Virus record (IMG/VR): IMGVR_UViG_3300020192_000279
Coordinates: 43,016-107,015 of that record
DNA length: 64,000 nt
Direction: 5' to 3' (one strand)
Source: a virus
Shown here: positions 6,884 through 62,917 of the stretch, piece after piece
Layout of the letters: every line of letters starts with the position of its first letter
Position numbering within the stretch: the stretch's first letter is position 1
Notes under the pieces: model-generated
The model's database searches: none
The model's input: the letters and a program-made list of their open reading frames with translations, nothing else
Told to the model about the DNA's origin: nothing
Position numbers and translations under genes: made by a program

Positions 6884-7899
6884 GCAAGACAGCTATCATT
6901 ACGGGCATCGGCGGCATGGACGGATTTTATCTATCTCGTTTATTGCTTGAAAAGAACTATAGGGTTGTTGGTATACTGCGTCGCTCTGCCAATAAGAACG
7001 ACGCTCGCTTACGCACATTGCAAGGCTCACCCAACCTGCATCTAGTGTATGGCGACATTACCGATGCGGCAAGTATCAGTACGATAGTTGAGCAGTTTAG
7101 ACCTGATGAATTTTATCATCTAGCCGCCAACTCTTTCGTGGGATGCTCATGGACATCGCCCAACCATGTGTTTGAAACGAATACAATTGGTGTAATTAAT
7201 TGCCTAGAAGCATTGCGACAGTTCAAGAAGGACTGTCGTTTTTACTTTGCTGGCAGTAGCGAGATGTATGGCGATTACGTTAAGCGTAAGGGCGGCAACG
7301 TTCTTCTGGACGAAAACTCACCAATGATTGCCGCATCACCTTATGGAGTATCTAAGGTAGCGGGATATCAAATGACAAAGGTGTACAGAGAGTCATATGA
7401 TATGTTTGCTGCGTGCGGCATTCTATTCAATCACTCTGCTCCTCATCGCGGCGAAGAGTTTTTTACTCGAAAAGTCACAAGTCAGTTGGCCAAGATCTTT
7501 TGGGGCCGTCAAGATCAACTTGTCTTGGGCAACCTTACTGCCAAACGTGACGAGGGCTATAGTGGCGATTACGTTAAGGCTATGTGGCTCATGCTGCAAC
7601 ATGACAAGCCAGACGATTTCGTTATTTCAACCGGCGAGACCCATAGCTGTCTAGAATGGCTTGACCACACACTCGACTTCTTTCACCTTTCAAGCGATTG
7701 TGTTACCACGTCTTCTAGTTTGGTTCGCCCCAACGAAGTGAATGTATTAATTGGTGACTCTACTAAAGCACGCGAGGTTTTAGGGTGGACGCCATCTGTA
7801 AGCTACAAAGAATTGAATACTAAGATGTGTTGTTATGATTACCATCTTCAATCATTGAACCCCGAGTTCGCTCGTCGAGCGGACGAGTTCCTTTTCTAG
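6880..7899 (+). CDS. gmd: GDP-mannose 4,6-dehydratase
   Basis: 339 aa. Dehydrates host GDP-mannose to GDP-4-keto-6-deoxymannose. Motifs: ITGIGGMDGFYLS (NAD(P) binding), RRSANKNDARL, HLAANSFVG, AGSSEMYG with the catalytic Ser/Glu, SPYGVSKVAGY (YxxxK) and FNHSAPHRGEEF, a Gmd hallmark. With fcl it forms a two-step GDP-fucose route. It ends in TAG, followed by a short gap to the next gene, so it closes the glycan cluster. Confidence 0.88.
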   Translation: MSKTAIITGIGGMDGFYLSRLLLEKNYRVVGILRRSANKNDARLRTLQGSPNLHLVYGDITDAASISTIVEQFRPDEFYHLAANSFVGCSWTSPNHVFETNTIGVINCLEALRQFKKDCRFYFAGSSEMYGDYVKRKGGNVLLDENSPMIAASPYGVSKVAGYQMTKVYRESYDMFAACGILFNHSAPHRGEEFFTRKVTSQLAKIFWGRQDQLVLGNLTAKRDEGYSGDYVKAMWLMLQHDKPDDFVISTGETHSCLEWLDHTLDFFHLSSDCVTTSSSLVRPNEVNVLIGDSTKAREVLGWTPSVSYKELNTKMCCYDYHLQSLNPEFARRADEFLF

Positions 7900-7907
7900 G
7901 AGTAAAT

Positions 7908-8594
7908 ATGAATAAGAATGAAAAGCCGCATGAGATCACTGAACGTGAGAAGCGTGCATGGCAAGAGGGTTCTAAGACCCGCAAACGTGATCGTCCTACA
8001 TTGACAATGCTACAGCGTATTGTATTCTTGAAGATGGTTGCACAGCTTTCAAGTAATACAGCATTCGAAAGAACGCTTGGATTGAGTGCTGCCGACGTTG
8101 ACTTCTATAAAAATGAGTTCAATGTTGAAAATCAAAGTGATGCTAGACGTTTGTATAAACGCCTAGAGACCGACATGATTGAAGGTAACGAAGAGCGTAT
8201 TATTAGCGAGACAGGCAAAGCTCGTGACGCTGAGGCTACTGCTAATCTTAGACTGAAAGAGCTTGAATTGCGTAAGACGATTGAGAAACGTGAAAAGGCC
8301 GTTGGCACGCCGAACGGTAATGCAATTCGTACTGAGGATGCCGAACGTCAACAACGTTTCCAGCAAGAGCAAGACGCTCAAATGACAGAAGCTCTTAGCA
8401 AGAGTGAGCCTTGGTTTTTGCCACTTGAAGGCTCTGAATCCGATAGACGCGGTATTACCGAACGTTTCCGTCGAGACGTTGAGAATGGTGGTTTACAGTT
8501 TTGTGTCAATAAGTATCAGGCCAATATTCTTCAATTGAAAACAGAAGCGGCAAGACTCAAGCTTCGCATCAATTGGGATAGAGTCAAAAGATAA
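7908..8594 (+). CDS. Hypothetical protein with coiled coil
   Basis: 228 aa, highly charged, preceded by GGAG six bases before the ATG. A basic N-terminus (KTRKRDRP), a helix with LQRIVFLKMVAQLSSNTAFERTLGLS that may be a helix-turn-helix, then a long Glu/Arg/Lys-rich helix at residues 80-150 likely to coil. It ends in INWDRVKR; the unrelated gene at 26320 begins with the same INWDRVK. A small terminase subunit-like role is conceivable but not supported by a motif. Confidence 0.6.
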   Translation: MNKNEKPHEITEREKRAWQEGSKTRKRDRPTLTMLQRIVFLKMVAQLSSNTAFERTLGLSAADVDFYKNEFNVENQSDARRLYKRLETDMIEGNEERIISETGKARDAEATANLRLKELELRKTIEKREKAVGTPNGNAIRTEDAERQQRFQQEQDAQMTEALSKSEPWFLPLEGSESDRRGITERFRRDVENGGLQFCVNKYQANILQLKTEAARLKLRINWDRVKR

Positions 8595-8604
8595 ACCGCA
8601 AACT

Positions 8605-9324
8605 ATGAAATTGACGCATCAAAGTTTGCAACAACTCTACGATACCATGTCGTTGGATGAAATGGCTATTCATGTAGGCATGTCAAAGTCTACCCTGTAT
8701 TATCATATGAAAAAGTTGGGCATCGCCCGTAGAGGTAAGAGTGACGCTCAACGTAAACACATTGAGACTATTGGTCATCAGAGAACTGGCAGCCATCATA
8801 CGAGCGAGGCTCGCGAAAAGATATCGACGGGCACGAAAGAGTTTTGGGAGTCCGATAGAGGTAAAGATCAGAAGGCTGCGTTACGTAAATTGCGTCGCCA
8901 AGAATGGTCAGATAGTACAAGTAAGAGGCGTGGTGCCGTACTGGCACGCCTTCAAGATGCTCACAGGCCGGAGCCCGGCGAGCTTTCGAACTTTGGAAAG
9001 AAGTTGTCCACGTTCCTTGCAAGTAGGGAACGTGTTTCTACAGGAATCCGACTGACGAACGATCACATTAGTGACATAATCTTAGAGGACAGGAAGGTGG
9101 TTATAGAGCTTATCTTCCCGATTAGTATCTATGGTGAACAACAACAACATCGACTCGAAGAACGGTACGCACGCCTCACGCAGCATTTGAATGCCGCAGG
9201 CTATCGCGTTATGATCATCGAAGACAAGTCCAATTCTGTATCGCAAGCTCGCTGTCAGCGGGTATATGATCAACTCTGTCTCTTTTTTCAAGAGACGCAA
9301 CAGGCCAAGACAATCATTTCATGA
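8605..9324 (+). CDS. Putative homing endonuclease (HTH + Vsr/EDxHD-like nuclease)
   Basis: 239 aa. The N-terminal 40 residues form a helix-turn-helix (LDEMAIHVGMSKSTLYYHMKKLG). Next comes HTSEAREKISTGTKEFW, a NUMOD3-like DNA-contacting motif common in homing endonucleases. The C-terminal half (VVIELIFPIS, RYARLTQHLNAAGYRVMIIEDKS) has the strand order of Vsr/EDxHD nucleases. The catalytic acidic residues are only partly recognisable. Mobile gene between two operon members; overlaps the next by 4 bp. Confidence 0.6.
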   Translation: MKLTHQSLQQLYDTMSLDEMAIHVGMSKSTLYYHMKKLGIARRGKSDAQRKHIETIGHQRTGSHHTSEAREKISTGTKEFWESDRGKDQKAALRKLRRQEWSDSTSKRRGAVLARLQDAHRPEPGELSNFGKKLSTFLASRERVSTGIRLTNDHISDIILEDRKVVIELIFPISIYGEQQQHRLEERYARLTQHLNAAGYRVMIIEDKSNSVSQARCQRVYDQLCLFFQETQQAKTIIS

Positions 9325-10028
9325 CTATCACACCCAAGCTACCCCGATACGGCACTAACTGGGAAGATCAACTTCAACCTACCGACATTGGTACTCGAAA
9401 AGAAGATAATAGGGAGATGCGAGTTGTATACTTGCGTGGTCTACAACGTCTTGCTCAAGAAGCTGGCATGATTCGCAGTGAATGTAGACTCAACTTCATC
9501 ACAAAGGACCAGACCGGATCAGTTGGCATCATGCAGGCTGTGTATACGGTTGAGTTTTCTGATGGTACTTGGTGGGTTGGAGCAGCCGACTGTAACTCGG
9601 CGAATACGTCAGAGAAGTACATGAAGTATCCAACGGCGGTGGCCGAGTCTCGTGCAGAAGCCCGTTGCCTTCGCAAGGCCCTGAACATTGGTATCCTGTC
9701 GTCGGAAGAGATTGGCTTTACTGATGGTGGTGCGATTGAACAAATTGCGGCCTCATCGAATAAGCAAGTGGATACACAGGTTGTGAAGGCTATTGAAAAG
9801 CTTTGTGAGTCTCGTGGCGTTACGAACGCCGAAGTGCTCGAAGCGGTTCTTAGTAAAGATCGCAATAGCTCCGTCTTTGAGCTTGGCGAATTGACGGTTG
9901 ACGAAGGTCAGAAAGCCATGGGATGGCTAAACGAACAGAAACCGAAGGCGGTCAAGTTGACTGCTACCCAAGAACGTGACGCCCGCAAGAAGGAATTGCG
10001 GGCACAGGCAGATAAGGATAATTCATGA
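9321..10028 (+). CDS. Hypothetical protein, possible single-strand annealing (Rad52-like) protein
   Basis: 235 aa. The segment YPTAVAESRAEARCLRKALNIG near residue 110 resembles the helix of phage Rad52/Erf-like annealing proteins, and WWVGAADCNSANTSEKYMKYP just before it fits the beta-sheet of that fold. The C-terminus has a UBA-like helical piece (KLCESRGVTNAEVLEAVL) and a charged tail. The next gene is a small zinc-ribbon protein, an arrangement often seen with such proteins. Assignment is from pattern only. Confidence 0.45.
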   Translation: MTITPKLPRYGTNWEDQLQPTDIGTRKEDNREMRVVYLRGLQRLAQEAGMIRSECRLNFITKDQTGSVGIMQAVYTVEFSDGTWWVGAADCNSANTSEKYMKYPTAVAESRAEARCLRKALNIGILSSEEIGFTDGGAIEQIAASSNKQVDTQVVKAIEKLCESRGVTNAEVLEAVLSKDRNSSVFELGELTVDEGQKAMGWLNEQKPKAVKLTATQERDARKKELRAQADKDNS

Positions 10029-10366
10029 AGATTACATATACAAGCAAGAGTGGTCGTCTCGCCGCAGAGTTTGACGAGAAGTCCCAAAAAGATCTCTTCC
10101 AACAGATTTCTACATTTCAAGAAGTCTTTGAAGAGACGAAGTGTGGTGTCTGCGGTAACGAAGATTTGCGTTTTGTTGTCCGCAACGTTAAGGACAACGA
10201 TTTTTATGAACTCCACTGCTTGAACATTTCTTGCAAGTCTCGCTTGGCGTTTGGACAGCACAAGAAGGGTGAAACGCTGTTTCCGAGTCGCAAGGACGAC
10301 GAAGGTAAGTGGCTACGTAACGGCGGTTGGACCAAGTGGAACCCTGATACGAAGAAGGAAGAGTGA
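10025..10366 (+). CDS. Small zinc-ribbon protein
   Basis: 113 aa with CGVCGNE (CxxC) near residue 40 and CLNISCKSR (CxxxxC) near residue 67, forming one zinc site. A positively charged GGWTKWNPDTKK tail ends the protein. Encoded in 4-bp overlap with the possible annealing protein upstream, so it may be a DNA-binding partner. No enzyme motif seen. Confidence 0.6.
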   Translation: MKITYTSKSGRLAAEFDEKSQKDLFQQISTFQEVFEETKCGVCGNEDLRFVVRNVKDNDFYELHCLNISCKSRLAFGQHKKGETLFPSRKDDEGKWLRNGGWTKWNPDTKKEE

Positions 10367-10746
10367 TGAATACATTCCGCCTTACTTTTCAAGAGTATCA
10401 AAAGCTTGCTGCCGCTACCGCAGTTTATCCTTTTGTTGGGGTCAGTCCAAATAGTGTTGGTGAGACTGCACATTGTGAAAACTACATTTATCCTGCTCTT
10501 GGATTATGTGGAGAGGCTGGTGAAGTAGCTGAAAAAATCAAGAAGATTATTCGTGATAAAGGTGGTGCAGTATCAATAGAAGATAAGATGGCTATTGCCA
10601 AAGAGCTTGGCGACGTTATGTGGTATCTTGCCGCTCTATGCAAAGAACTTGATCTTGATATGGGTGAAGTCGCTCAATGTAATCTTGACAAGCTTGCTGC
10701 TCGTGCATCAAAAGGAACTCTTGGTGGAAGCGGTGATAGCAGATGA
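10366..10746 (+). CDS. MazG-like nucleoside triphosphate pyrophosphohydrolase
   Basis: 126 aa from the ATG at 10366. It has the EAGEVAEKIKK helix (ExxE) and KELGDVMWYLAALCKEL (ExxD) that bind Mg2+ in MazG-type enzymes, which cleave (d)NTPs or alarmones to monophosphates. Single-domain phage versions are thought to lower (p)ppGpp or sanitise nucleotide pools. Lies in the nucleotide-metabolism part of the operon; overlaps the next gene by 4 bp. Confidence 0.85.
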   Translation: MNTFRLTFQEYQKLAAATAVYPFVGVSPNSVGETAHCENYIYPALGLCGEAGEVAEKIKKIIRDKGGAVSIEDKMAIAKELGDVMWYLAALCKELDLDMGEVAQCNLDKLAARASKGTLGGSGDSR

Positions 10747-11036
10747 GACGCATTGGTGATGGAACTCCTGTAGACAAGAAGGTGTTTACGTGCCCGCAAT
10801 GCTTGCGGATACGTATGACTCGTCCATTGGATCATACAGTGTCTCTTGACAAACAAGAATTCAAGACGAAAGATGGTTCGTCTATTTTGTTAATGATTGA
10901 CACTTGCGACTCTTGCGTCGCAAGGAATTATCGTAGGTATTTTGAACCAACGAGAGCAGACATTCGCAAAGTTCTCAGGGCTATGAATGATGAGGCTCGG
11001 GTGTCGCCTGATGTATCGCTAGAAGAATTGCTGTAG
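10743..11036 (+). CDS. Hypothetical protein with zinc site
   Basis: 97 aa. CPQC near residue 18 and CDSC near residue 57 make a CxxC...CxxC zinc knuckle. The rest is basic and helical (RADIRKVLRAMNDEA). Between the MazG-like gene and the FAD oxidoreductase, stop TAG. No family recognised. Confidence 0.55.
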   Translation: MRRIGDGTPVDKKVFTCPQCLRIRMTRPLDHTVSLDKQEFKTKDGSSILLMIDTCDSCVARNYRRYFEPTRADIRKVLRAMNDEARVSPDVSLEELL

Positions 11037-11037
11037 T

Positions 11038-12264
11038 ATGGTCAAACACGCAAATTTGTGGTTTGAATCGTGCCCAACCAAGCGTGAACTCACGTCTGGA
11101 CTGATAAAGAATGTTGACACGCTCATCATCGGTGGCGGACTCGCCGGGGTGAGCTTGCTTTATAATCTTGTCAATAGCGGCATGGTCAATACATATCTCG
11201 TTGAAGAAAACTCTGTTGGGTTTCATGGGTCCGGTCGTGGCATGGGACAGCTTATGCTACGCGGTAGCAAGCTCTTTCATGAAATGCCAGATGGTGAAGA
11301 GTACCTGAATTTCGTTAGCGACAATAACTGTCGTTTCTTGAAAGGGTTACGAGCACTGTCCTTTGATCATGACCTTCGTGAAACTGGTGGTCTAAGACTT
11401 GCTGTGAACGATCAAGAGATGGCGTTGCTTGAACATGAATCATGGTTTATTCAACAGGTGCGTGGGATCGACTGTCCAATTCTTTCGAGACGACAGTTAG
11501 ATTTACTAGTACCAGCTAAACATTTCATAGGCGGTATGTTTGTTCCTAATGAAGCTTCGTACAATCCATACAAAGTTGTGAATGGTTTGCGAGATACTGT
11601 TGAAAAAAACGGATTTCGTGTCTTTACTAACACTCAGGTAGAATCTGTACTTGCAAACGACGATGGAAGTTTAACTGTTTTAATTCGTCATCGTGGCACC
11701 ATTCGAGCCAAACAAGTAGTGTATTGTCTTGGTGGATATACGAGTAGACTGCTACCAGAATTTGCGGACGTGCTTGTTCCATTTAGAGAGCAAGTAGTTG
11801 CTACCGATTATCTTGAAAACGACGCTGTACAGACGCTCCCGACTATGAGCATTTCATGCAATAATGGTCAGGAGCGATTTCGTCAGTACGCGAGTCGTTT
11901 CCTTATGGGAGGCATGCGACAGTCTGTGCGAGGCCAACAAGAAGGTCTCGTATACGACGGAGAGATTAGTTCTGCGGTGTATGAAAAACTTCGTGTATTC
12001 GCCATCGAATCTTTTCCAGTCTTAAAACATTCTAAGTTCAGTCATGTCTGGTCAGGTGTTTTCTGTGGCACCAAAGATGATAAGCCATTGATTGGTCCGG
12101 TACCAAATCGCCCCAATCAATACATGATGACTGGTTTCGGTTGTTATGATTCTAGCAACGCAATTCTCGGCAGTATGTTGATCAAGGATTACATTAAGCA
12201 CAAGGGCTCGGCTGGGCCGGGCCACCAAATTTTGCATCCAGGACGCTTCTTTAATGAAATCTAA
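11038..12264 (+). CDS. FAD-dependent oxidoreductase, DAO/DadA family
   Basis: 408 aa. The N-terminus has LIIGGGLAGVSLLYNL (GxGxxG) and a VEEN acidic strand end for FAD. GMGQLMLRG follows the flavin-binding segment and TGFGCYDSSNAILGSMLIKDYI closes the FAD domain, as in D-amino-acid or glycine oxidase-like proteins. Such proteins are rare in phages. Possible roles are sugar-amine oxidation in glycan making, or amino-acid oxidation in thymidine hypermodification; neither has a partner visible here. The HNH gene starts inside its last codons. Confidence 0.75.
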   Translation: MVKHANLWFESCPTKRELTSGLIKNVDTLIIGGGLAGVSLLYNLVNSGMVNTYLVEENSVGFHGSGRGMGQLMLRGSKLFHEMPDGEEYLNFVSDNNCRFLKGLRALSFDHDLRETGGLRLAVNDQEMALLEHESWFIQQVRGIDCPILSRRQLDLLVPAKHFIGGMFVPNEASYNPYKVVNGLRDTVEKNGFRVFTNTQVESVLANDDGSLTVLIRHRGTIRAKQVVYCLGGYTSRLLPEFADVLVPFREQVVATDYLENDAVQTLPTMSISCNNGQERFRQYASRFLMGGMRQSVRGQQEGLVYDGEISSAVYEKLRVFAIESFPVLKHSKFSHVWSGVFCGTKDDKPLIGPVPNRPNQYMMTGFGCYDSSNAILGSMLIKDYIKHKGSAGPGHQILHPGRFFNEI

Positions 12265-12727
12265 ACATAGAAATTCAGATGGTAAACGTTATTATGATAT
12301 TAAAGGCGATCCCATGGCCTTAGATCAACGTAGAGAATTAAGGCTATCATATGATAGTAGGTTATGGAATAAAGCAGTGAAGGCTTATAGTGCTCTTGTA
12401 AAGAAAGACTCTGAGCGTGGCCATACTGCCATTACATTTGGCTATCCATTTAAAGTACTAACGCTACAAGAGTATTTGCAGATCGTTATACTTCCGTGTT
12501 ATTATTGTGATAACGTTCCTTCGCTTGGTGCAGACAGAATGGATAATGATATGGGTCATTGGTCATCTAATGTTGTGCCATGTTGTGAAAAATGTAATGT
12601 CATATTAGGTACATTACCATTTAATGTGAAAGAAAATCTTAAGGATGGTCTAAAGAGGTCCGTGAAGGACGGCTTATTAGACGCCTGGACGCCCATATAC
12701 AAGACAAAGAAAAAGAGTTGGCTATGA
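12254..12727 (+). CDS. HNH homing-type endonuclease, free-standing
   Basis: 157 aa. The core CYYCDNVPSLGADRMDN and CCEKCNVILG follows the same CxxC...DRxDN...CxxCN plan as the other HNH genes here, with ADRMDN replacing GIDRID. It starts 11 bp inside the oxidoreductase gene and its TGA overlaps the reductase start (ATGA), so both flanking genes stay intact. RNR genes are frequent targets of phage homing enzymes, which fits this position. Confidence 0.78.
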   Translation: MKSKHRNSDGKRYYDIKGDPMALDQRRELRLSYDSRLWNKAVKAYSALVKKDSERGHTAITFGYPFKVLTLQEYLQIVILPCYYCDNVPSLGADRMDNDMGHWSSNVVPCCEKCNVILGTLPFNVKENLKDGLKRSVKDGLLDAWTPIYKTKKKSWL

Positions 12728-14604
12728 AACTTGAAGGCTTAAGTCACGAAATCTTTACTCAACGTTATGCTATGCCAACTGAGCGAGAATGGAGTCAGTG
12801 TGCTCGTAGAGTCAGCGAGAATATTGCTCGTGAAGAAAAAGACGACGTTCAGAAACACTGGTCTAATACGTTTTACGAAGTCATAAATAATGGATGGTTT
12901 ATGCCGGGTGGTCGTATTCTTTTTGGTGCTGGTCGTAGACAATTTAATATGTTGAATTGCTATAGATTACATCCAGAGGACACGGTTGAAAGTATTGGCA
13001 ATACAATCAAGGAAACGTACATCATTTCTTGCGGTGGTGGCGGCATTGGGTTCAATTTTTCCGACATTCGCCCCAAGGGAGACAACATTCAGAACATATC
13101 CCACTCTGCTCCCGGTGCTGTTTCTGTTATGAGAATGATCAATGAAGTTGGCGAGCACGTTCGTAGCGGTAAAAATAGACGTACGGCACTTATTGCTATT
13201 TTGAATGTAACTCATCCAGACCTACTTGATTTCTTGCACGTCAAGTTAGATCTCAATGAGCTTACTAATTTCAATATCAGTATCGGTATCACCAATGATT
13301 TTCTAGACGCTGTGAGAAAAAATCTTGAATGGACGTTTCGCTTTCAAGGACGTGAATATCATGTTTACGATATTGATCGCACAAACACAATTGGTACAGA
13401 TACTGTACGTGTTGTGGGGTTAAACACAGAAGACGCCTTAGGTCGAGCAAAGCATCACCATAGAATCACTCAGGATGATAAGCTTGACAATGTACGTGTT
13501 TACAAGCTTTATGCTCGTGAGATTTGGGACATCATGATTGTCAATAGCTGGAAGAGCGGCGATCCCGGTATTTACAATATTGACCTTGCTAACTCATATA
13601 CAAACGTTTCATATTTTGAATCATTGGACTCTCCTAATCCGTGTGGTGAAATTCCGTTGCCGCCATATGGCAATTGTTGTCTTGGCCACATCAATCTTTC
13701 TGAGATGGTTGATCATAAAAAACATGATGTGGATTGGAAACGTTTTGCAAATACTGTTCGTACGGGCATTAGATTTTTAGATAATGTTTTGTCTGCTAAT
13801 CATTATCCTGTACCAGAATGTAAGACGATTGGTCAGCGTAGTCGTCGTATTGGTCTTGGGGTTACTGGCTTACATTACATGTTGATTAAACTTGGTTATA
13901 AATATGGAGACGAAAAGTGCTTAGAGTTTCTAGAAAGATTATTTGCTACATTTAGAGACGAAGCTTACAAAGCCTCTGTTGAATTATCAAAAGAAAAGGG
14001 TGCTTTTTCAGCATTTGATGCTGAAAAATATTCACAAGAAGTGTTTTTTGCTCATTTGCCAGCACGTATTCAAACAGAGATAAAGAAGCATGGCGTACGT
14101 AATGCCGTGATGTTAACAATTGCACCCTGTGGAACCAATAGTATGGTGCTGGGAGTTTCTTCTGGTATTGAACCTATCTTTGCTCCACTCTATAAGCGTC
14201 GTTTTAAAGAGGGAAATATTTGGCGTGAAGAATTCGTAGCCGATTCTCTATTCGCTGAGTACTACAAAAACGGCAGGGATGTTAGCGTTTTCAAGGGTGC
14301 ATACGATATTTCAGTTAGAGATCACATCCGCGTACAGGCAACAATTCAGAAGTACATTGATTCTGCTATTTCCAAAACTACAAATCTACCCAATGATTAT
14401 CCTGTTGAACAACTAAGTGACGTCATTCTTGAGTTTGCTTCTTATGTTAAGGGTTTCACAATCTATCGTTCTGGCTCAAAAGGATCTGAGCCATTGCAGC
14501 CTATTGACATGAATGATCAAGCTGTGTTAGACTTCGCTATGGAGAGGGCTGGTCTAGGAGTTAAGAGTCTTGAGGCTTGTCGTGATGGACTTTGTGAAAT
14601 CTAG
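12724..14604 (+). CDS. nrdJ: Ribonucleotide reductase, class II-like (NrdJ) large chain
   Basis: 626 aa from the ATG at 12724. Reduces ribonucleotides to deoxyribonucleotides. Visible: NMLNCYRL with a redox Cys, CGGGGIGFNFSDIRP, NPCGEIPLPPYGNCCLG with the thiyl-radical Cys, TIAPCGTNSMVLGVSSGIEP near residue 470, and a C-terminal CRDGLC pair that could pass electrons. No ATP cone and no small-subunit gene in the window favour an adenosylcobalamin-dependent class II enzyme over NrdA, but NrdB could lie outside. ThyX follows. Confidence 0.82.
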   Translation: MKLEGLSHEIFTQRYAMPTEREWSQCARRVSENIAREEKDDVQKHWSNTFYEVINNGWFMPGGRILFGAGRRQFNMLNCYRLHPEDTVESIGNTIKETYIISCGGGGIGFNFSDIRPKGDNIQNISHSAPGAVSVMRMINEVGEHVRSGKNRRTALIAILNVTHPDLLDFLHVKLDLNELTNFNISIGITNDFLDAVRKNLEWTFRFQGREYHVYDIDRTNTIGTDTVRVVGLNTEDALGRAKHHHRITQDDKLDNVRVYKLYAREIWDIMIVNSWKSGDPGIYNIDLANSYTNVSYFESLDSPNPCGEIPLPPYGNCCLGHINLSEMVDHKKHDVDWKRFANTVRTGIRFLDNVLSANHYPVPECKTIGQRSRRIGLGVTGLHYMLIKLGYKYGDEKCLEFLERLFATFRDEAYKASVELSKEKGAFSAFDAEKYSQEVFFAHLPARIQTEIKKHGVRNAVMLTIAPCGTNSMVLGVSSGIEPIFAPLYKRRFKEGNIWREEFVADSLFAEYYKNGRDVSVFKGAYDISVRDHIRVQATIQKYIDSAISKTTNLPNDYPVEQLSDVILEFASYVKGFTIYRSGSKGSEPLQPIDMNDQAVLDFAMERAGLGVKSLEACRDGLCEI

Positions 14605-14638
14605 TAGACATGAGACTGATCTTGGTCATAATATAGAC

Positions 14639-14911
14639 ATGCAGAACACACAAAAGTACGTTATGATCTTCGCTAGGGACGAGCAGGGTAACGAAATCAA
14701 ATATCGTTTCATGCTTTCCATTAGTAAGTCAATTAAGTCAGTCGAAGAGAAGCTTCTTAAGGCTGTGATGGGTACCGATGGAGTCGATCGTATCGAGATT
14801 CATGGTCGATACACGGCTGAGGTCGTGATCGCTCGTGCCTTTGATGCCGAAGAGGTATTAAAGGTACTCACGCCCAAGCTCGATGAAGTACTCAGCGACA
14901 TCATTGTATGA
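14639..14911 (+). CDS. Hypothetical protein
   Basis: 90 aa from the ATG at 14639. Two alternating strands and helices (YVMIFARDEQGNEIKYRFML; VDRIEIHGRYTAEVVIARAFD), suggesting a ferredoxin-like fold. Between nrdJ and thyX and overlapping thyX by 4 bp, so it may serve nucleotide metabolism. No family recognised. Confidence 0.6.
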   Translation: MQNTQKYVMIFARDEQGNEIKYRFMLSISKSIKSVEEKLLKAVMGTDGVDRIEIHGRYTAEVVIARAFDAEEVLKVLTPKLDEVLSDIIV

Positions 14912-15537: not shown

Positions 15538-15566
15538 CTTATGGTCTAATTGACGTTCTTTCAAGA

Positions 15567-15581
15567 CCCGCTAAAAGCGGG
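15567..15581 (+). terminator. Hairpin terminator after thyX
   Basis: Perfect 5-bp stem CCCGC / GCGGG with a TAAAA loop, 30 bp after the thyX stop. The trailing sequence is only weakly T-rich. It separates nucleotide genes from virion genes. Confidence 0.5.
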
Positions 15582-15640
15582 CCTTAGTGTATTCATCTAA
15601 GGTCGGGTATCGTTTTTGTACCTTTTCAAGGAAGTTCAGT

Positions 15641-16087: not shown

Positions 16088-16114
16088 TGACACAACCCCT
16101 TTAAAGGGGAGCCC

Positions 16115-16941: not shown

Positions 16942-16965
16942 TGTAATTATATTTGGAGGAACACC

Positions 16966-57302: not shown

Positions 57303-57462
57303 GTGACTTCCATAAAACGCAGCGACCTAAGAAATAAGCCACTGCGATCAACATGAAGTAGTGTTCACATAGCACGAAAAAGAGAGTAGTGATGGGCAGT
57401 AGAAACATACATACGCTTAACACGATGGAGCCGAGCAGAAGACTCAGGGCGTGGTGCTTCAC
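57292..57462 (-). CDS. Small membrane protein, 56 aa
   Basis: GTG start at 57462 overlapping the upstream stop (GTGA). Two hydrophobic helices (LLLGSIVLSVCMFLLPITTL; FMLIAVAYFLGRCV). Extension to an ATG at 57504 would overlap the 52-aa gene and is less likely. Confidence 0.5.
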   Translation of the reverse strand: MKHHALSLLLGSIVLSVCMFLLPITTLFFVLCEHYFMLIAVAYFLGRCVLWKSLDK

Positions 57463-57617
57463 TTCACTGTCACCATAGCATTTTGAGGCACGAAAACGAT
57501 ACAATTATTGGTTTCAAGACAGAAGACCTTGGCTTGAGGTCCACCGTACAATTTCAAGAACGTCTTGCCGTCATAAGTAAACCACGTTGCGTTTCTTAGA
57601 GACCAAAAGAACTTCAT
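57459..57617 (-). CDS. Small hypothetical protein, 52 aa
   Basis: ATG overlaps the upstream stop (ATGA). Beta-rich with aromatic residues (FFWSLRNATWFTYDGKTFL). Below common cut-offs but tightly coupled on both sides. Function unknown. Confidence 0.5.
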   Translation of the reverse strand: MKFFWSLRNATWFTYDGKTFLKLYGGPQAKVFCLETNNCIVFVPQNAMVTVK

Positions 57618-57862
57618 ACTGCGTAGAAAACAAGGTCTTCTTGTTTCTCGTCCCAGGACATATTCACTAACCCAAGCTCAACCAGACGCATAAGATCTTC
57701 GCTAATCGCCAGAGTATTAATCTCTGTAAGAAGCTGGTCGTCTGTGAAGTAATCTGGCATTCGCGAGATAGCCAATATAGTAATGTACTCGGAGTATTCG
57801 CCGTCAACTGAGACACGTGAGCACTCTTCAAGAGGCTTGAAATAGTCAGATTTATTGTGCAT
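57614..57862 (-). CDS. Hypothetical protein
   Basis: 82 aa from the ATG at 57862. Acidic, helical: LLTEINTLAISEDLMRLVELGLVN resembles a winged-helix half. Overlaps neighbours. Function unknown. Confidence 0.55.
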   Translation of the reverse strand: MHNKSDYFKPLEECSRVSVDGEYSEYITILAISRMPDYFTDDQLLTEINTLAISEDLMRLVELGLVNMSWDEKQEDLVFYAV

Positions 57863-58055
57863 AATTTCTCCTAAACAGTTTGTCGATTTCAAAACATTCG
57901 GCGTTCGTCTTTTTGTTTCGAGGACCAAAAACGACAGTGATAAAGGCCAGTCTACATCCCTTAAAGTCTGCGTGCCACCACAGATGCCAGCCATCATAAC
58001 GATGCGTCGCTAGATTTAGCCACCATCGACGTGTATGTGCGTTCAGATCAAGCAT
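57852..58055 (-). CDS. Small hypothetical protein, 67 aa
   Basis: Trp/His-rich N-terminus (RRWWLNLATHRYDGWHLWWH), basic C-terminus. Overlaps both neighbours by 8-11 bp. May be nucleic-acid-binding; no family recognised. Confidence 0.5.
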   Translation of the reverse strand: MLDLNAHTRRWWLNLATHRYDGWHLWWHADFKGCRLAFITVVFGPRNKKTNAECFEIDKLFRRNYAQ

Positions 58056-58623
58056 AGCCGGTAATCGTATTAATGATGCGGACGGCAGTTTCCTCGTCGT
58101 TATCTTTAAGGATGCGGACGGCCATTTTGTGGTACCTGGAACGTTTAATGCCTACGTGTTTCCAGTCCCAAACCTCGTCCTTCTTGATGGTCGTAGCCTT
58201 CTTGGTTCCGCACACACATTCTTCTCGCTTGAAGATGGTGCGTTTGCCAAGTGCTTCGTAGAGGCGTTTTGCCATAGACAAAACTAACTCCTCTTTTTCT
58301 TTTTCAAGCGATTCAGACGTAAAGTGAACTTGCGATACGTCTACACCCTTAGCGTGTAAGTCTCGAAGATAGCGACCTAAGCGAGACCTCTTTCCGCAGT
58401 AACGGAAGTCGAATTCATTGAGGCTAATCTTAGCATTTTTGTCATGCACGACCACAACGCCTAACTGTTTCCATTGGTGACGTTCGCCATAGTGGATAAA
58501 CGTTGCCTGCATTGATGGCGACGCATTAGTCGGTACTGGCACTGGTGGCAAATTACGATTAAAGTTTCGAAGTCCCGCTTGGGCTGTGAAAACGTTCAAT
58601 CGTTTAGGGTTTAAGTGTGTCAT
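58048..58623 (-). CDS. Hypothetical protein
   Basis: 191 aa. Strands VVVVHDKNAKISLNEFDFRY, a helix KEKEELVLSMAKRLYEAL and CVCGTKKAT near residue 138. Basic overall. Followed by tiny genes. No family recognised. Confidence 0.55.
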   Translation of the reverse strand: MTHLNPKRLNVFTAQAGLRNFNRNLPPVPVPTNASPSMQATFIHYGERHQWKQLGVVVVHDKNAKISLNEFDFRYCGKRSRLGRYLRDLHAKGVDVSQVHFTSESLEKEKEELVLSMAKRLYEALGKRTIFKREECVCGTKKATTIKKDEVWDWKHVGIKRSRYHKMAVRILKDNDEETAVRIINTITGYA

Positions 58624-58697
58624 GATTGGTAATATTAGCGGTAACGATTGTCACTTTTGCTGTCACAAAAACATAATCACTTTTGTAACGACGTATG

Positions 58698-58841
58698 TTA
58701 ATCTTCCAGGTCTTCGCCATATTGGGCGAACGGCAGAGGCGTAGGTTTGGGTGTTGCGGTCGGCCACATTTTCTTGACACCCTTAACGACTAAGCCGCCA
58801 ACAATGAGACCGCCAAAGATGACGGGGCACACCACACACAT
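58698..58841 (-). CDS. Small membrane protein, 47 aa
   Basis: Starts at the stop of the previous small gene. CVVCPVIFGGLIVGGLVVKG forms one transmembrane helix with a CxxC at its start; Pro-rich tail with acidic end (GEDLED). Confidence 0.5.
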   Translation of the reverse strand: MCVVCPVIFGGLIVGGLVVKGVKKMWPTATPKPTPLPFAQYGEDLED

Positions 58842-58979
58842 TCACTCACCATCCTTTTCGAGTTGTTCGATTACCCAGATTATCATCTTAAGTTCGGCTT
58901 CTAATATTAGACTCTGTCGTTCAATTAGGGCTCGTTTAGCTCGAAACTGTTCGATTCGGGCCTGTAGCTTAGTTTGCAT
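58842..58979 (-). CDS. Small coiled-coil protein, 45 aa
   Basis: ATG 5 nt after the -10 box. A single amphipathic helix (QARIEQFRAKRALIERQSLI ...). First gene of a small leftward unit. Confidence 0.5.
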   Translation of the reverse strand: MQTKLQARIEQFRAKRALIERQSLILEAELKMIIWVIEQLEKDGE

Positions 58980-58984
58980 ATCTC

Positions 58985-59012
58985 AGGATACCCCATCTAG
59001 TGGCTAAGTCAA
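58985..59012 (-). promoter_or_regulatory. Leaderless promoter with CTTGAAAA upstream of -35
   Basis: TTGACT (59007-59012), 16-bp spacer, TATCCT (58985-58990), 5 nt to ATG. CTTGAAAA (59017-59024) lies 4 bp upstream of the -35 box. Confidence 0.72.
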
Positions 59013-59246
59013 GTTCTTTTCAAGTTCCTTACGCAGAGCCTCCACACACTTATCACAAACCTTACCAGAGACATTATTGAGGCGACCGAGGTCGATACCC
59101 ATGAGTTTGGTGCCGCAAATGGCGATTGTGCCTTCCTTGGCGGGTTTATCCCCGTTGCGGATGATGTGGGCCAGCGGAGGCCAGCAGGACGGAACCTCGT
59201 CCACCATGGGTTCGATTACGGGCTCAGTCAGTGTTTCTTTTATCAT
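59004..59246 (-). CDS. Small zinc protein (DUF3039-like)
   Basis: 80 aa from the ATG at 59246. HIIRNGDKPAKEGTIAICGTK and VCDKCVEALRKEL give a two-part zinc site in the order of actinobacterial DUF3039 proteins. Its start immediately follows CTTGAAA. Confidence 0.5.
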   Translation of the reverse strand: MIKETLTEPVIEPMVDEVPSCWPPLAHIIRNGDKPAKEGTIAICGTKLMGIDLGRLNNVSGKVCDKCVEALRKELEKNLT

Positions 59247-59409
59247 TTTCAAGCTCTTTCAGAACTGCCCTTAATAGAGTCATATGACCAATAAGAGTAG
59301 TTATGACTGTGGGATTGTCATAGTACATATTCATGATGAGTTCGATGGCGGGAATCGAGTTACGGACCTTAGTGACTAAATTGTCTTCCTTGGTATTACT
59401 CATTTTCAT
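59224..59409 (-). CDS. Small helical protein
   Basis: 61 aa from the ATG at 59409 (an ATG at 59403 is equally possible). Helix-rich (IPAIELIMNMYYDN, LLRAVLKELENDK). The start codon directly follows CTTGAAA. Confidence 0.5.
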   Translation of the reverse strand: MKMSNTKEDNLVTKVRNSIPAIELIMNMYYDNPTVITTLIGHMTLLRAVLKELENDKRNTD

Positions 59410-59411
59410 TT

Positions 59412-59555
59412 TCAAGCTACTCCAAAACCATAGTCAATGTCAATGTACAGATCCTCGTGCGTATTCGCTTTGGGGCGACGCTCATTAGGGTCTATCTTAG
59501 CCGATCCTTTTCTTTTCGTTATAGTTTTTGTTTTCCTGTGCTCACACACAAACAC
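59412..59555 (-). CDS. Small basic protein, 47 aa (GTG start)
   Basis: Ends just before the next ATG. FVCEHRKTKTITKRKG is basic; C-terminus EDLYIDIDYGFGVA acidic. GTG at 59555 or TTG at 59561. Coding supported mainly by overlap geometry. Confidence 0.4.
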   Translation of the reverse strand: MFVCEHRKTKTITKRKGSAKIDPNERRPKANTHEDLYIDIDYGFGVA

Positions 59556-59736
59556 TAACAAAGCTCATTCTCCGCCGGGCAGATTCTTGCAATGGCTCGA
59601 AACGGAATTCTCCAGGATGTCGGCTCGCCCACAAGCACTTCGGCCCCGACCGTGTGTTATCGGACCTCCCTCGCCTGAGTGCGTTTTGCGATCGTGCAGA
59701 TACAAAAAAACACGGCCAGCGTTTGCTTGAAATAGA

Positions 59737-59877
59737 TCAGCTAGCGTCCCTGGACGCAGCTTCCAGCCAACCAGCCTCCCAATCGTCGTGGTCGCTAGTA
59801 CCTTCTCGATACGGGTTATCCTGTAGCCCCTCACCGTCACAGTACGCATCGTAGCCTTCGTCGTATTCTGAACTCAT
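59737..59877 (-). CDS. Ribosome modulation factor-like small protein
   Basis: 46 aa from the ATG at 59877. GYDAYCDGEGLQDNPYREGT followed by WEAGWLEAA reproduces the RMF pattern (GxxAyxxG...NPy...WxxGWxxa). RMF dimerises and silences 70S ribosomes; phage versions are common and unexplained. Leaderless promoter with a CTTGAAAA-like site in the spacer. Confidence 0.65.
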   Translation of the reverse strand: MSSEYDEGYDAYCDGEGLQDNPYREGTSDHDDWEAGWLEAASRDAS

Positions 59878-59883
59878 GTTTGC

Positions 59884-59912
59884 ATGATAATACTTTTTCG
59901 AGCTATTGTCAA
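59884..59912 (-). promoter_or_regulatory. Leaderless promoter with two CTTGAAAA-type sites
   Basis: TTGACA (59907-59912), 17-bp spacer holding CTCGAAAA, TATCAT (59884-59889), 6 nt to ATG. A TTTTCAAG copy lies 3 bp upstream of the -35 box, giving an inverted pair around it. Confidence 0.78.
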
Positions 59913-60165
59913 GAAGTTCTTGAAAAAGAAAAAAGTGGTTGCACACCTACCCTCTTGAGTGTACTATCTCGTGTCGTCGGGGTGATATCCTGTAATGGGG
60001 CACCTTGGGCGACACGATCTTTTGAATGCAGGAGCCCAGCTAGGGCTCGCAAGATAGGTGTCCGCAAACCCCAATCCGGCGGTTTGGCACAATCCAGCAA
60101 ATTGTGGCGTTTTGCGTGTAAACGCTATACGTCTGTTGCCCGTCCTGCACTTTTCAAGGAATAGC
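59913..60165. other. Non-coding stretch with hairpins
   Basis: No convincing gene. An 8-bp stem TCGTGTCG/CGACACGA (59969-60017) encloses a smaller GGTG/CACC element. Could be part of a processed RNA or a terminator for the upstream units. Confidence 0.4.
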
Positions 60166-60193
60166 TTGACATTACGAGGAATCGTGATATGAT
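60166..60193 (+). promoter_or_regulatory. Promoter of the initiator tRNA / structured RNA
   Basis: TTGACA (60166-60171), 16-bp spacer, TATGAT (60188-60193). TTTTCAAG lies 10 bp upstream of the -35 box. Reads rightward into the tRNA at 60279. Confidence 0.75.
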
Positions 60194-60278
60194 AGAAGTG
60201 CCAGACTGATGGCTTGAAAAAGTCACCACCTAACTATGCGATTGCCAGTATCGTCAAACTGGTGACAACTTGAAACAC

Positions 60279-60357
60279 TGCGGAGTAGAGAAGCCTGGTT
60301 GTTCTCGTCTGCCTCATAAGCAGAAGATCGTGGGTTCAAATCCCACCTCCGCTACCA
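60279..60357 (+). tRNA. Initiator tRNA-fMet (CAT)
   Basis: Anticodon loop CTCATAA in TCTGC/GCAGA; AGAGAAGCCTGGTTGTTCTCG is the initiator-type D-arm; T-loop TTCAAAT; first acceptor pair is a T-T mismatch, the hallmark formylation determinant; A73, CCA. The three G-C pairs typical of the initiator anticodon stem are absent. The only tRNA found on the + strand. Confidence 0.82.
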
Positions 60358-60700
60358 TCTAACTTAGAAATTGGGCCATGTAAAGAAGCGGATAAAGCCT
60401 ACTGACCGTCAAGCCTCAGTAGCCACAAAACCGCAGCCAGTGACGGCTGGAAACGATCAATATAAGATCGTGCCCAACGGAGACATCGGGGGTCAAACCC
60501 TGGTGTCTCTTTTCGTTTGCTTTGTAGCTCGAAAAGGTAGAGTTACTAAGGGAACTATATGCCGCTGGCGTCTCTTCGACACGAACGCTTGGTATTCCTA
60601 AACCAACGGCGTTAGGCATATTAGAGACCGGGGGTCGAGAAAATGGGGTAATAGATATTCCCCTGGGAGTACCGGGGTACGTAAAAAATACGTCTAAGAC
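60358..60700 (+). ncRNA. Large structured RNA candidate downstream of tRNA-fMet
   Basis: No ORF, but many stems in order: CTACTGA/TCAGTAG, CAGCC/GGCTG, ACGATC/GATCGT, a long GAGACA..GGGGT/ACCCT..TGTCTC, CTTTTCG/CGAAAAG, AACGC/GCGTT, CCCC/GGGG and ACGTA/TACGT. Size, ornate folding and a neighbouring tRNA recall GOLLD/ROOL-type phage RNAs; no specific motif was matched. Confidence 0.45.
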
Positions 60701-60733
60701 TTAAAAATGAAATTCTGAATAGACATGAGAGAA

Positions 60734-61110
60734 AACTCTGGAAGTCTGTACAATTCGCTTACTTAGCGTTTCCCAGAAATTTCAGCGGCTTCGTCACCGT
60801 CCTTACTAGTGGCTTGAAAAGGAAGAACTGGGGGCGGGCGTGCTCAACTCCTATCCCCATAGGAGGAGCACCACCCGTCGCCGTGGCCCGCCTTCGCACA
60901 CCCTATCTTACTTCATTTCAAGCACACCGGGTGTCTTGAAGTAGTCTTTTTGGTAAGTGTCCCTAGTAAGTATGGGGTGTGTTTCTTGAAAAGGCTGGAA
61001 GCCTGAGCATCGTCATTACTAGCAATCCCCAGAACTCTGGAAGCTTCGCTACCGTCCTTACTATGCGGCGATCCCAAAAACTCTGGCAGTCTGTACAATC
61101 GCCTTACTAG
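60734..61110. repeat. Iteron-like repeats
   Basis: Five degenerate copies of a unit containing ACTCTGGAAG and ending TTACTAG, at about 60734-60766, 60779-60809, 60998-61022, 61030-61064 and 61077-61110, spaced 42-46 bp within each group. Two groups are separated by the 115-bp direct repeat. Possible replication origin iterons or repeated RNA hairpins (CCAGA/CTGG). Confidence 0.5.
60808..60923. repeat. 115-bp direct repeat, copy 1
   Basis: Nearly identical to 61124-61248. Contains CTTGAAAA, a hairpin CTCCTAT/ATAGGAG inside GTGCTC/GAGCAC, and a -10-like TAAGAT on the minus strand without a good -35. Non-coding. Confidence 0.75.
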
Positions 61111-61123
61111 TGTCTAAAGCAGA

Positions 61124-61248
61124 AGTGGCTTGAAAAGGAAGAACTGGGGGCGGGCGTGCTCAACTCCTATCCCCATAGGAGGAGCACCACCCGTCGCCGT
61201 GGCCCTTGGCCCGCCTTCGCAACACCCTATCTTACTTCATTTTCAAGC
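61124..61248. repeat. 115-bp direct repeat, copy 2
   Basis: Same elements as copy 1 with an 8-bp insertion. Here the minus-strand promoter is complete: TTGACA (61251-61256), 16-bp spacer containing CTTGAAAA, TAAGAT (61229-61234). It would transcribe a short hairpin-rich RNA across the repeat. Confidence 0.75.
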
Positions 61249-61323
61249 GATGTCAACAAGGATCCACGATTTTCGTCCCTGATGTCGGATCTTCCAGGGC
61301 GACCGTATCTCGTTGACAGTTAC

Positions 61324-61352
61324 ATGTTATCATCGTTTTCAAGCGATGTCAA
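61324..61352 (-). promoter_or_regulatory. Promoter with CTTGAAAA in spacer
   Basis: TTGACA (61347-61352), 17-bp spacer with CTTGAAAA flanked by CATCG and CGATG, TAACAT (61324-61329). No ORF follows within 60 bp; probably makes a small RNA. Confidence 0.72.
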
Positions 61353-61425
61353 ACAGCCTATATGTTTTATGCTTACATGGTTTTGTCGGTTTGACAAGTA
61401 AAATCATGGATTTATCAGAAACTGT

Positions 61426-61502
61426 TGGAGCGGGTCTCTCCCCGCGTCAAGTCTAGTTACCGAGCCCTTCGGCATGGCGACGCGACTTTCCGTTTGAACC
61501 GC
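61426..61502 (-). ncRNA. tRNA-like rod RNA with CCA end
   Basis: 77 nt, the length of a tRNA with CCA. Ends GCGGTTC/GACCCGC plus T73 and CCA, but inside are only CGCGTC/GACGCG and a CCGA/TCGG hairpin: a rod, not a cloverleaf, with no usable anticodon or T-loop. Confidence 0.35.
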
Positions 61503-61531
61503 TTGTTACGGAACCGCAACAGAGAGGCAGA

Positions 61532-61626
61532 TGGATGCCCTGAAAGGATTTACACCTAAGTCTTTCGCACTATTTCCTAGGACTGCGTGCGGCTGTTCTG
61601 TTTCTTGTGTTTTTGAACTACAGGGC
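61532..61626 (-). ncRNA. tRNA-like RNA with its own promoter
   Basis: Ends GCCCTGT/TCAGGGC, D-like stem GTTC/GAAC, middle stem CGCAC/GTGCG with a 16-nt loop, T-like arm with loop TGTAAAT, 3' TCCA. The start predicted from the promoter at 61633 falls on its first nucleotide, which supports a defined 5' end. Confidence 0.45.
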
Positions 61627-61632
61627 GGACAT

Positions 61633-61660
61633 ATCATACCATCGTTTTCAAGATAGTCAA
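61633..61660 (-). promoter_or_regulatory. Promoter of the tRNA-like RNA
   Basis: TTGACT (61655-61660), 16-bp spacer with CTTGAAAA, TATGAT (61633-61638). A second, inverted copy (61669-61676 on the + strand) lies just upstream of the -35 box. Confidence 0.75.
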
Positions 61661-61694
61661 GCGGAACGCTTGAAAAAGAAATCGCCCGTCTCGT

Positions 61695-61722
61695 TTGACA
61701 TTCCCACGGATCGGCGTATCAT
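61695..61722 (+). promoter_or_regulatory. Promoter of the DUF932 gene
   Basis: TTGACA (61695-61700), 16-bp spacer, TATCAT (61717-61722). Leader of about 40 nt with GGAG before the ATG, so this one is not leaderless. CTTGAAAA lies about 19 bp upstream of the -35. Confidence 0.72.
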
Positions 61723-61769
61723 ATGGAGTACCGCCAATCGGCACGAACCAACAACAACGGAGAATCGAC

Positions 61770-62654
61770 ATGATGCAAGCAACGACCGACTTCCTGAACC
61801 GCGAGGGTATGAACTACAGCGTGCAGGCCATGCTGGCACCGCACCCCGTGCATCGTGATCAGAACGTCGAGGGACAGTACCACCTCGTTCGCTCTACGGA
61901 CAATGTCGTGATCTCGCCGAAAACGGTCTCGAAAAAGTACGTCGCGACGTGCCCGATCGACATGATCGCCCCGATCGCCCCTCTGATCGCCGAGGGCTGG
62001 GTGACGCCGGAGCGAGGCTTCATGCTCTCCGGCGGGTCGCACGAGATGCTGGTGTTCAAGATCGACGGCGGCAAGCTCGACAACAGCGGCAAGGTCGACG
62101 GTGAGGATTGGGACCACTTTTTCCAGCTTCACAACTTCCAGGGGTCCGGATCGTTCTTCGGCTCGCTCTTCGCCCGCCGTCAGATCTGCTCGAACGGTGC
62201 CGTTCGCATCGTGAGCAAGGGTAACGGGTTCCGTCTCCGCCACATGGGAGCCCTTCAAGCGAAGTACGAGGATGCCATGCGAACGTGGGAAGATATCCAG
62301 GTCGAGATCCGCAAGCTCTCGAAGCGGATGACGGTCTGGAATGGTCAGACGCTGACCTACTCCGAAGCCGTCGCCCTCTTCCACATGATTTACGATGTCG
62401 AGGATCCGAACGACATCGCGACGCGGACGGAAAACGAACTCAACTTCGCGATCAGCGAGTTCTCGAATCCGGGCCGTGGCACCTACGGCAAGACCGTTGC
62501 GGATGTCTACAACGCGATCACGGCGACGAACACGCACTATGCTCCCAAGAGTAGCCGCGAGACGGAAACGAAGCGTATGTCGAGCCTCTTCAATCCGAAC
62601 GGTTCGCGGAACCTTCTCGAAGGTCGGGCAATCGAAGTGCTGTCGAGCCTCTGA
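61770..62654 (+). CDS. DUF932 (TIGR03299-like) phage/plasmid protein
   Basis: 294 aa from the ATG at 61770 (ATGATG). Motifs RGFMLSGGSHEMLVFKI, HDFFQLHNF-like segment and RRQICSNGAVRIVSKGNGFRLRHMG (split: ICSNGAV, FRLRHMG) match DUF932, where CSNG...RxRH is conserved. Function unknown; frequent on plasmids and large phages. The gene is clearly richer in G+C than its surroundings and strongly codon-biased, which suggests high expression or recent arrival. Confidence 0.78.
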   Translation: MMQATTDFLNREGMNYSVQAMLAPHPVHRDQNVEGQYHLVRSTDNVVISPKTVSKKYVATCPIDMIAPIAPLIAEGWVTPERGFMLSGGSHEMLVFKIDGGKLDNSGKVDGEDWDHFFQLHNFQGSGSFFGSLFARRQICSNGAVRIVSKGNGFRLRHMGALQAKYEDAMRTWEDIQVEIRKLSKRMTVWNGQTLTYSEAVALFHMIYDVEDPNDIATRTENELNFAISEFSNPGRGTYGKTVADVYNAITATNTHYAPKSSRETETKRMSSLFNPNGSRNLLEGRAIEVLSSL

Positions 62655-62665
62655 TTAGCCTCGGG

Positions 62666-62701
62666 GTGGCGGTTGACAAGACCGCCACTCCGGACTATAC
62701 T
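62666..62701 (+). promoter_or_regulatory. Promoter with -35 in the loop of an inverted repeat
   Basis: TTGACA (62673-62678) lies in the loop TGACAAG of a perfect 8-bp repeat GTGGCGGT/ACCGCCAC (62666-62688); 17-bp spacer; TATACT (62696-62701); 8 nt to ATG. Same plan and same loop as at 35983-36022 on the other strand. Confidence 0.78.
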
Positions 62702-62709
62702 CTAACCTC

Positions 62710-62871
62710 ATGGCACATCGCTGGGATCGTGAATATAATCGGGCTTCTCGACCTCCGCCCGACCTCATTGGTGACGCCAAAGGCGTTCTCACGGAATGGG
62801 TTATCTTGGCACTAGGGGCCGCATTACTGGGGTGCTTCATCAAGTTTATGGGATGGAACACGGACGACTGA
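62710..62871 (+). CDS. Small membrane protein, 53 aa
   Basis: Basic N-terminus (AHRWDREYNRASRPPP), one transmembrane helix (WVILALGAALLGCFIKF), acidic end. Near-leaderless. Followed by a strong hairpin. Function unknown. Confidence 0.6.
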   Translation: MAHRWDREYNRASRPPPDLIGDAKGVLTEWVILALGAALLGCFIKFMGWNTDD

Positions 62872-62876
62872 CCTAG

Positions 62877-62902
62877 GGGGCGGCTCAAAAGAGCCGCCCC
62901 CA
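62877..62902 (+). terminator. Hairpin terminator
   Basis: 11-bp stem GGGGGCGGCTC/GAGCCGCCCCC with AAAA loop a few bases after the membrane protein gene. Lacks a long T-run, so efficiency is uncertain. Confidence 0.6.
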
Positions 62903-62917
62903 ATTCTTGAAAAGGAG

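What the first reader, a model, noticed from the sequence alone, without database searches (positions are those of the whole stretch)
6946..62913. A genome-wide octamer, CTTGAAAA, enriched about 25-fold and built into promoters
I count about 58 copies of CTTGAAAA/TTTTCAAG in 64 kb where about 2 are expected, plus roughly as many one-base-shorter copies. They occur in coding and non-coding DNA and in both orientations. At 44.24, 61.24, 61.34 and 61.64 kb a copy lies inside the 16-17 bp spacer of a sigma70-type promoter; at 59.0, 59.9 and 62.9 kb copies flank the -35 box, sometimes as inverted pairs. This resembles the stoperators of cluster A mycobacteriophages, where one repressor binds promoters and many other sites. 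It could also be a nucleoid-protein or phage-encoded activator site.
Basis: partly seen in the sequence, partly recalled or inferred. Interest (0 to 1): 0.88.

Follow-up and report, generated by a model that had tools for sequence, protein, structure and literature searches.

The report
Dispersed operator-like sites across a phage
A large virus of bacteria carries about one copy per kilobase of a short DNA word, selected at the DNA level even inside genes and set at fixed positions around a group of promoters, which looks like the landing site of one phage-wide gene-silencing protein not yet identified.

Summary
The octamer is real: 59 copies in the window against 3.7-4.9 expected (12-16 fold, not 25). 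It is the most over-represented 8-mer there. The contig is a 107-kb fragment of a ~148-152 kb phage group without close named relatives. Codon usage does not explain it: synonymous-codon shuffles give 13.5 coding copies against 54 seen in the contig, and intergenic DNA has 21 against 0.9. The full site is asymmetric, gCTYGAAAAnG, identical in coding and non-coding DNA, with no second element. Inside genes CTTGAAA is the most synonymously conserved of 1215 testable 7-mers between relatives (62 of 97 kept against 30.7). At promoters it sits at fixed offsets: CTYGAAA 8-10 bp after the start of the -35 box, its inverse 13-15 bp before it (7 each, 0.25 expected). The likeliest role is repression of early promoters by one protein that also binds some 100 other sites. 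It works like, but is not, a Cluster A stoperator system: no orientation with transcription, mostly intragenic, no Bxb1-type repressor homologue, no integrase. The binding protein is not identified; a ribbon-helix-helix protein of the relatives is a weak lead. Nothing was shown experimentally.

The parts
4974..62913 (.). 59 exact CTTGAAAA sites on both strands; full site gCTYGAAAAnG
61633..61660 (-). sigma70-type promoter with a site in the spacer (61645-61652 -) and an inverted site upstream of the -35 (61669-61676 +)
61324..61352 (-). promoter with a site in the spacer (61336-61343 -)
61229..61256 (-). promoter with a site in the spacer (61240-61247 -)
59884..59912 (-). promoter (TTGACA, 17 bp, TATCAT) with CTCGAAAA in the spacer (59895-59902 -) and an inverted CTTGAAAA upstream (59919-59926 +); same geometry at the G001 147513 promoter
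   Evidence: read; G001 copy
60166..60193 (+). promoter with an inverted site upstream of the -35 (60151-60158 -) and a site downstream (60213-60220 +); upstream offset of -14 also in G001 (147740) and G004 (144963)
62918..62946 (+). promoter with CTTGAAAA just upstream of the -35 (62906-62913 +) and inverted CTTGAAA in the spacer (62932-62938 -); same arrangement at G004 165
58985..59012 (-). promoter (TTGACT, 16 bp, TATCCT) with CTTGAAAA just upstream of the -35 (59017-59024 -)
   Evidence: read
44234..44261 (-). weaker promoter-like site with CTTGAAAA in the spacer (44244-44251 -)
41699..41726 (-). promoter with an inverted CTTGAAA next to the -35 (41728-41734 +)

Best explanation
The octamer is the core of an 11-bp asymmetric double-stranded DNA site, gCTYGAAAAnG, for one sequence-specific protein, most likely phage-encoded. 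Shown by computation: enrichment beyond codon usage on both strands, a sharp specificity profile, selective retention inside genes, and a fixed position around the -35 box of a group of promoters clustered near one end of the map. Inferred: protein on these sites would cover the -35 or the spacer on one or both sides and keep RNA polymerase off, so it turns those (probably early) promoters down. Also inferred: the roughly 100 other sites per genome hold the same protein along the DNA, either slowing transcription, compacting the genome, or acting as a sink that ties promoter shut-off to genome copy number.
For: Enrichment 59 vs 3.7-4.9. Synonymous shuffles in G000: sense 31 vs 6.5, antisense 23 vs 7.0; intergenic 21 vs 0.9. 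One-mismatch neighbours fall to or near background apart from T3 to C (5-fold) and some freedom at position 8. Same flanks in coding and intergenic sites, no second element. CTTGAAA ranks first of 1215 7-mers for synonymous conservation, z 7.3 (pairwise z 3.0 to 6.0). 62 distinct promoters: 7 copies at +8..+10 and 7 inverted copies at -13..-15 from the start of the -35, 0.25 expected each, P about 1e-8 each. The geometry recurs in G004, about 75% identical in DNA. Enrichment in all large relatives and weakly in several remote ones.
Against: No binding protein identified. The candidate ribbon-helix-helix gene has flanking sites in G001 but not in G004, and its model is low-confidence. Most sites are not at promoters, and most strong promoters lack a site, so regulation of promoters alone does not explain the number. 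In-gene sites are spread evenly along genes. A weak bias to one genome strand is not predicted by a pure operator model.
Confidence: 0.66

Rival explanations
1. The sites are mainly for genome maintenance: a nucleoid-like, partition-like or Chi-like recombination or replication element carried by phage DNA, and promoter copies are secondary.
For: Most sites are intragenic and evenly spread along genes; a weak genome-strand bias independent of gene direction; the phage encodes RecA and other replication proteins.
Against: Fixed offsets around the -35 box at about a dozen distinct promoters, highest density in the promoter-rich early-like region, intergenic enrichment far above coding. The strand bias is small and absent between genes.
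Confidence: 0.2
2. The motif is a promoter element (-35 like the sigma32 CTTGAAA) of a phage or host sigma factor.
For: The group encodes two clear sigma70-region-2 proteins; the sigma32 -35 consensus resembles CTTGAAA (own knowledge).
Against: No second element at any fixed distance in 346 sites, both orientations, mostly inside genes. The group has a separate oriented single-element promoter candidate, TTAGTGTA.
Confidence: 0.05
3. Activator site: the protein recruits RNA polymerase at the promoters with sites.
For: Sites next to the -35 at -12 to -15 could contact sigma.
Against: Copies in the spacer at +8 to +10 lie under the polymerase; most of these promoters have good -35 and -10 boxes and should need no activator.
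Confidence: 0.07
4. Codon or amino-acid bias artefact.
For: Sense copies are mostly in one frame, CTT GAA AA.
Against: Synonymous shuffles, antisense and intergenic enrichment, top synonymous conservation.
Confidence: 0.02

Closest known systems
Stoperators of Cluster A mycobacteriophages (L5, Bxb1, TipsytheTRex)
   Same: Short asymmetric site, in promoters and dispersed over the genome; core shares CTTGA (Bxb1 CTTGACACGTAAC).
   Different: Cluster A sites follow transcription and lie mainly in short intergenic gaps of temperate phages (PMC9283540, PMC6550527); here both orientations, mostly intragenic, no repressor homologue or integrase, and several times more sites.
17-bp repeats of Cluster O mycobacteriophages (Corndog)
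   Same: Dispersed sites without orientation, part within genes, denser at one genome end, no stable lysogens recovered (PMC4351075).
   Different: Those are perfect 7-3-7 palindromes, 34 in Corndog, and mostly not near promoters; here asymmetric 11 bp with promoter geometry.
SPBRE of SPbeta, bound by the master repressor MrpR
   Same: Repeated element found in silico, later shown to be one repressor's operator (PMC10516654).
   Different: SPBRE is about 15 bp, in promoter regions, around ten sites, temperate phage.
Asymmetric repeats of T1-like phages (T1, Stevie, TLS)
   Same: Lytic phages with stoperator-like repeats of unknown role (PMC4319613, PMC11447400).
   Different: Those are mainly intergenic and oriented with transcription.

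Membership tests
Cluster A stoperator system | Asymmetric site repeated over the genome | tested here: met
   gCTYGAAAAnG, no palindrome
Cluster A stoperator system | Orientation correlated with transcription | tested here: not met
   sense 31 / antisense 23 in G000, 26/27 in G001; tandem intergenic 12 with, 14 against in G000; Bxb1 control is oriented
Cluster A stoperator system | Sites in promoters and short intergenic gaps rather than genes | tested here: not met
   54 of 76 octamers in genes in G000, though intergenic density is higher
Cluster A stoperator system | Homologue of the Cluster A immunity repressor | tested here: not met
   tblastn of Bxb1 gp69 against five contigs gave nothing below E 0.02; remote homology not excluded
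Cluster A stoperator system | Temperate phage with integrase or partition genes | tested here: not met
   no tyrosine or serine recombinase in G000, G001, G004, G008, G013; partition genes not tested
Cluster A stoperator system | Bound repressor blocks initiation and elongation | not testable with these tools
   needs experiment
Cluster O type palindromic repeat | Dyad-symmetric 17-bp site | tested here: not met
   11-bp asymmetric logo
Sigma32-type promoter | -35 CTTGAAA plus a -10 at fixed distance | tested here: not met
   no downstream element

The most novel reading that the evidence does not exclude
A non-integrating large phage uses one protein both as operator-bound repressor of early promoters and as a genome-wide coat bound to about a hundred sites that selection maintains inside its own genes, so that promoter shut-off is coupled to genome copy number or compaction.
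Probability: 0.3. Interest if true: 0.8.

Novelty: new variant of a known kind. Interest (0 to 1): 0.6.

Why it matters
Dispersed repressor sites are known mainly from temperate phages, where silencing maintains lysogeny. Here they are abundant, unoriented and selectively kept inside genes in a phage group without a detected integrase. That makes the open question of what such repeats do in lytic phages (T1, Cluster O) testable with one defined site, and offers a simple statistic, synonymous conservation of k-mers, to find such systems elsewhere.

Tried and rejected
Codon-usage artefact: rejected by synonymous shuffles. Sigma32-like or other two-element promoter: no second element. Paired sites as the genome-wide unit: pairs are near random apart from promoters. 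Chi-like polarity: only a weak bias. Cluster A repressor homologue: none. Integrases: none. HTH_28 family search: no hit at the genome threshold. Ribbon-helix-helix protein as binder: suggestive in G001, not supported in G004, no PDB match or wider viral relatives found, weak model. HTH protein at 8605-9324: conserved, but its best matches are HNH/homing-endonuclease HTH domains. Host inference through the FAD oxidoreductase gave no relative. Literature search for the octamer with phage: of 369 papers the 15 listed showed nothing relevant. The palindrome at the ribbon-helix-helix gene (GTCCnCAGTGGAC) occurs only there, so it is not the dispersed site.

Full report
Where it lies. The window is positions 43016-107015 of a 107,015-bp virus record (G000). 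No named phage matches a 24-kb stretch of it by megablast. Through its DNA polymerase and rIIA proteins it has relatives in IMG/VR: G001 (151.8 kb; polymerase 98%), G008 (91 kb; 100%), G011 (48 kb; 98%), G004 (147.9 kb; 91%), G013 (76 kb; 89%) and fragments at 66-83%. G000 and G001 are about 94% identical where aligned, G000 and G004 about 74%, so G004 is the informative comparison. The first 100 bases of G004 recur at its end, so it is probably a complete genome.

The count. CTTGAAAA occurs 59 times on both strands of the window. Dinucleotide shuffles give 3.7, with 9 the largest of 100; an order-2 Markov model gives 4.9. It is the top 7-mer (CTTGAAA 111 vs 18.7) and top 8-mer. The whole contig has 76 against 1 for the reversed word, and G001 has 90 against 5.

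Not codon usage. I made a simple gene call and shuffled synonymous codons across all genes. In G000 the octamer is seen 31 times sense (6.5 expected, largest 13 of 200) and 23 times antisense (7.0, largest 15); intergenic DNA has 21 against 0.9. Reordered control words are near expectation in G000. The signal is in both strands, in genes and between them, which points to duplex DNA.

The site. Aligning 346 non-redundant CTYGAAA sites of G000 and G004 shows G before the core, A at position 8 and G at position 10, with the same flanks in coding and intergenic sites, and no other strong element within 70 bp at a fixed distance. Changing single bases of the octamer drops enrichment to or near background, except T3 to C (5-fold) and T or G at position 8 (3-4 fold). 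This is what a protein's specificity looks like. In G004 and G013 the words CTCGAAAW and CTTGAAAT carry more of the signal; in the most remote large fragment, G010, CTCGAAAW is the stronger word (15 vs 3.8).

Selection inside genes. For codons whose amino acids are unchanged between relatives, I asked how often a 7-mer stays identical, against other codons for the same leading amino acids in the same phase. CTTGAAA stays in 62 of 97 cases where 30.7 are expected, and ranks first of 1215 testable 7-mers (z 7.3; spread of z 1.4). Pairwise values for CTYGAAA are z 3.0 to 6.0. The three pairs pooled share genomes, so z is not a probability, but the rank is fair. Many single sites still turn over between G000 and G004, so density seems to matter more than exact place.

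Promoters. A sigma70 scan chosen without regard to the motif gave 62 distinct intergenic promoters in G000, G001 and G004. CTYGAAA reading with the promoter starts 8 to 10 bp after the first base of the -35 box in 7, and the inverted word starts 13 to 15 bp before it in 7; each has an expectation of 0.25 (P about 1e-8). Several promoters have both, so that the -35 lies between two inverted sites. A second arrangement, with the word just upstream of the -35 and its inverse in the spacer, occurs at 62.9 kb and at the corresponding G004 promoter (165), and its upstream half at 59.0 kb. These promoters cluster near one end of the map, where site density is also highest (35 per 10 kb in G001 140-150 kb). 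Calling them early promoters is inference from host-type boxes and location. The position bins were chosen after looking at the list, so the P values are optimistic, but the recurrence in the diverged G004 is further support.

What it does. Protein bound at these offsets would overlap the polymerase footprint at the -35 or the spacer, so repression is likelier than activation. What the roughly 100 other sites do is open: roadblock, genome coat, or sink. Sites are even along genes, face both ways, and show a weak preference for one genome strand in genes only.

Who binds. Not identified. The group encodes two clear sigma-like proteins (G000 28839 + and window 25821-26339 -), but a different, oriented element, TTAGTGTA, lies upstream of many genes and is the better candidate for a phage sigma. 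A 63-aa protein with a ribbon-helix-helix-like pattern and a KRGRGRP arm is present in G001 and G004; in G001 an inverted pair of sites lies just before it, in G004 not. Its PHROG match to a transcriptional regulator is weak (E 0.006) and its model low-confidence though of strand-helix-helix order. G000 is incomplete and does not cover that region, so absence there means nothing.

Known systems. Cluster A stoperators are asymmetric and dispersed, but oriented with transcription (PMC9283540, PMC6550527). The same k-mer procedure applied to Bxb1 recovered its site and its orientation. Here orientation fails, most sites are in genes, no Bxb1-type repressor is found, and integrases are absent. Cluster O repeats are unoriented and partly intragenic but palindromic and mostly not at promoters (PMC4351075). 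T1-like repeats are mainly intergenic and oriented (PMC4319613). SPBRE is a precedent for a repeat later proved to be a repressor's operator (PMC10516654). I therefore file this as a new variant of dispersed operators, not as a member of any of these.

Noticed in passing
window 47134-47740 and 63504-63929; G001 both ends: Family of genes with 18-bp (six-residue) repeats matching Pfam Hexapep left-handed beta-helix models; at least seven such genes in G001, several with near-identical promoters that lack the octamer.
   Followed up: partly
G000, G001, G004, G008, G013; e.g. window 26731 (-): TTAGTGTA(AT)T, oriented, mostly 28-110 bp upstream of genes, looks like a single-element phage promoter; one copy precedes a sigma-like gene.
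   Followed up: partly
window 25821-26339 (-) and G000 28839-29033 (+): Two phage-encoded sigma-70 region-2 proteins, and a weaker third at G001 23115.
   Followed up: partly
window 60360-61700: About 1.3 kb without called genes, with two near-identical ~90-bp copies (around 60810 and 61126), three octamer-bearing minus-strand promoters and only a tRNA-Met beside it; no Rfam match other than tRNA; possibly small RNAs.
   Followed up: partly
window 41598-50417: Array of 23 predicted tRNA genes on the minus strand, among small genes; one with anticodon CTA.
   Followed up: no
window 34859-35287, 37979-39145, 39060-40596: NADAR-domain protein, RNA ligase and NAPRTase-like proteins (two matching members in the relative G001), suggesting NAD rebuilding and tRNA repair.
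   Followed up: no
L085 2837-3025 (G001) and L106 1035-1223 (G004): Ribbon-helix-helix-like protein with an AT-hook-like KRGRGRP arm and a conserved palindrome GTCCnCAGTGGAC before it.
   Followed up: partly
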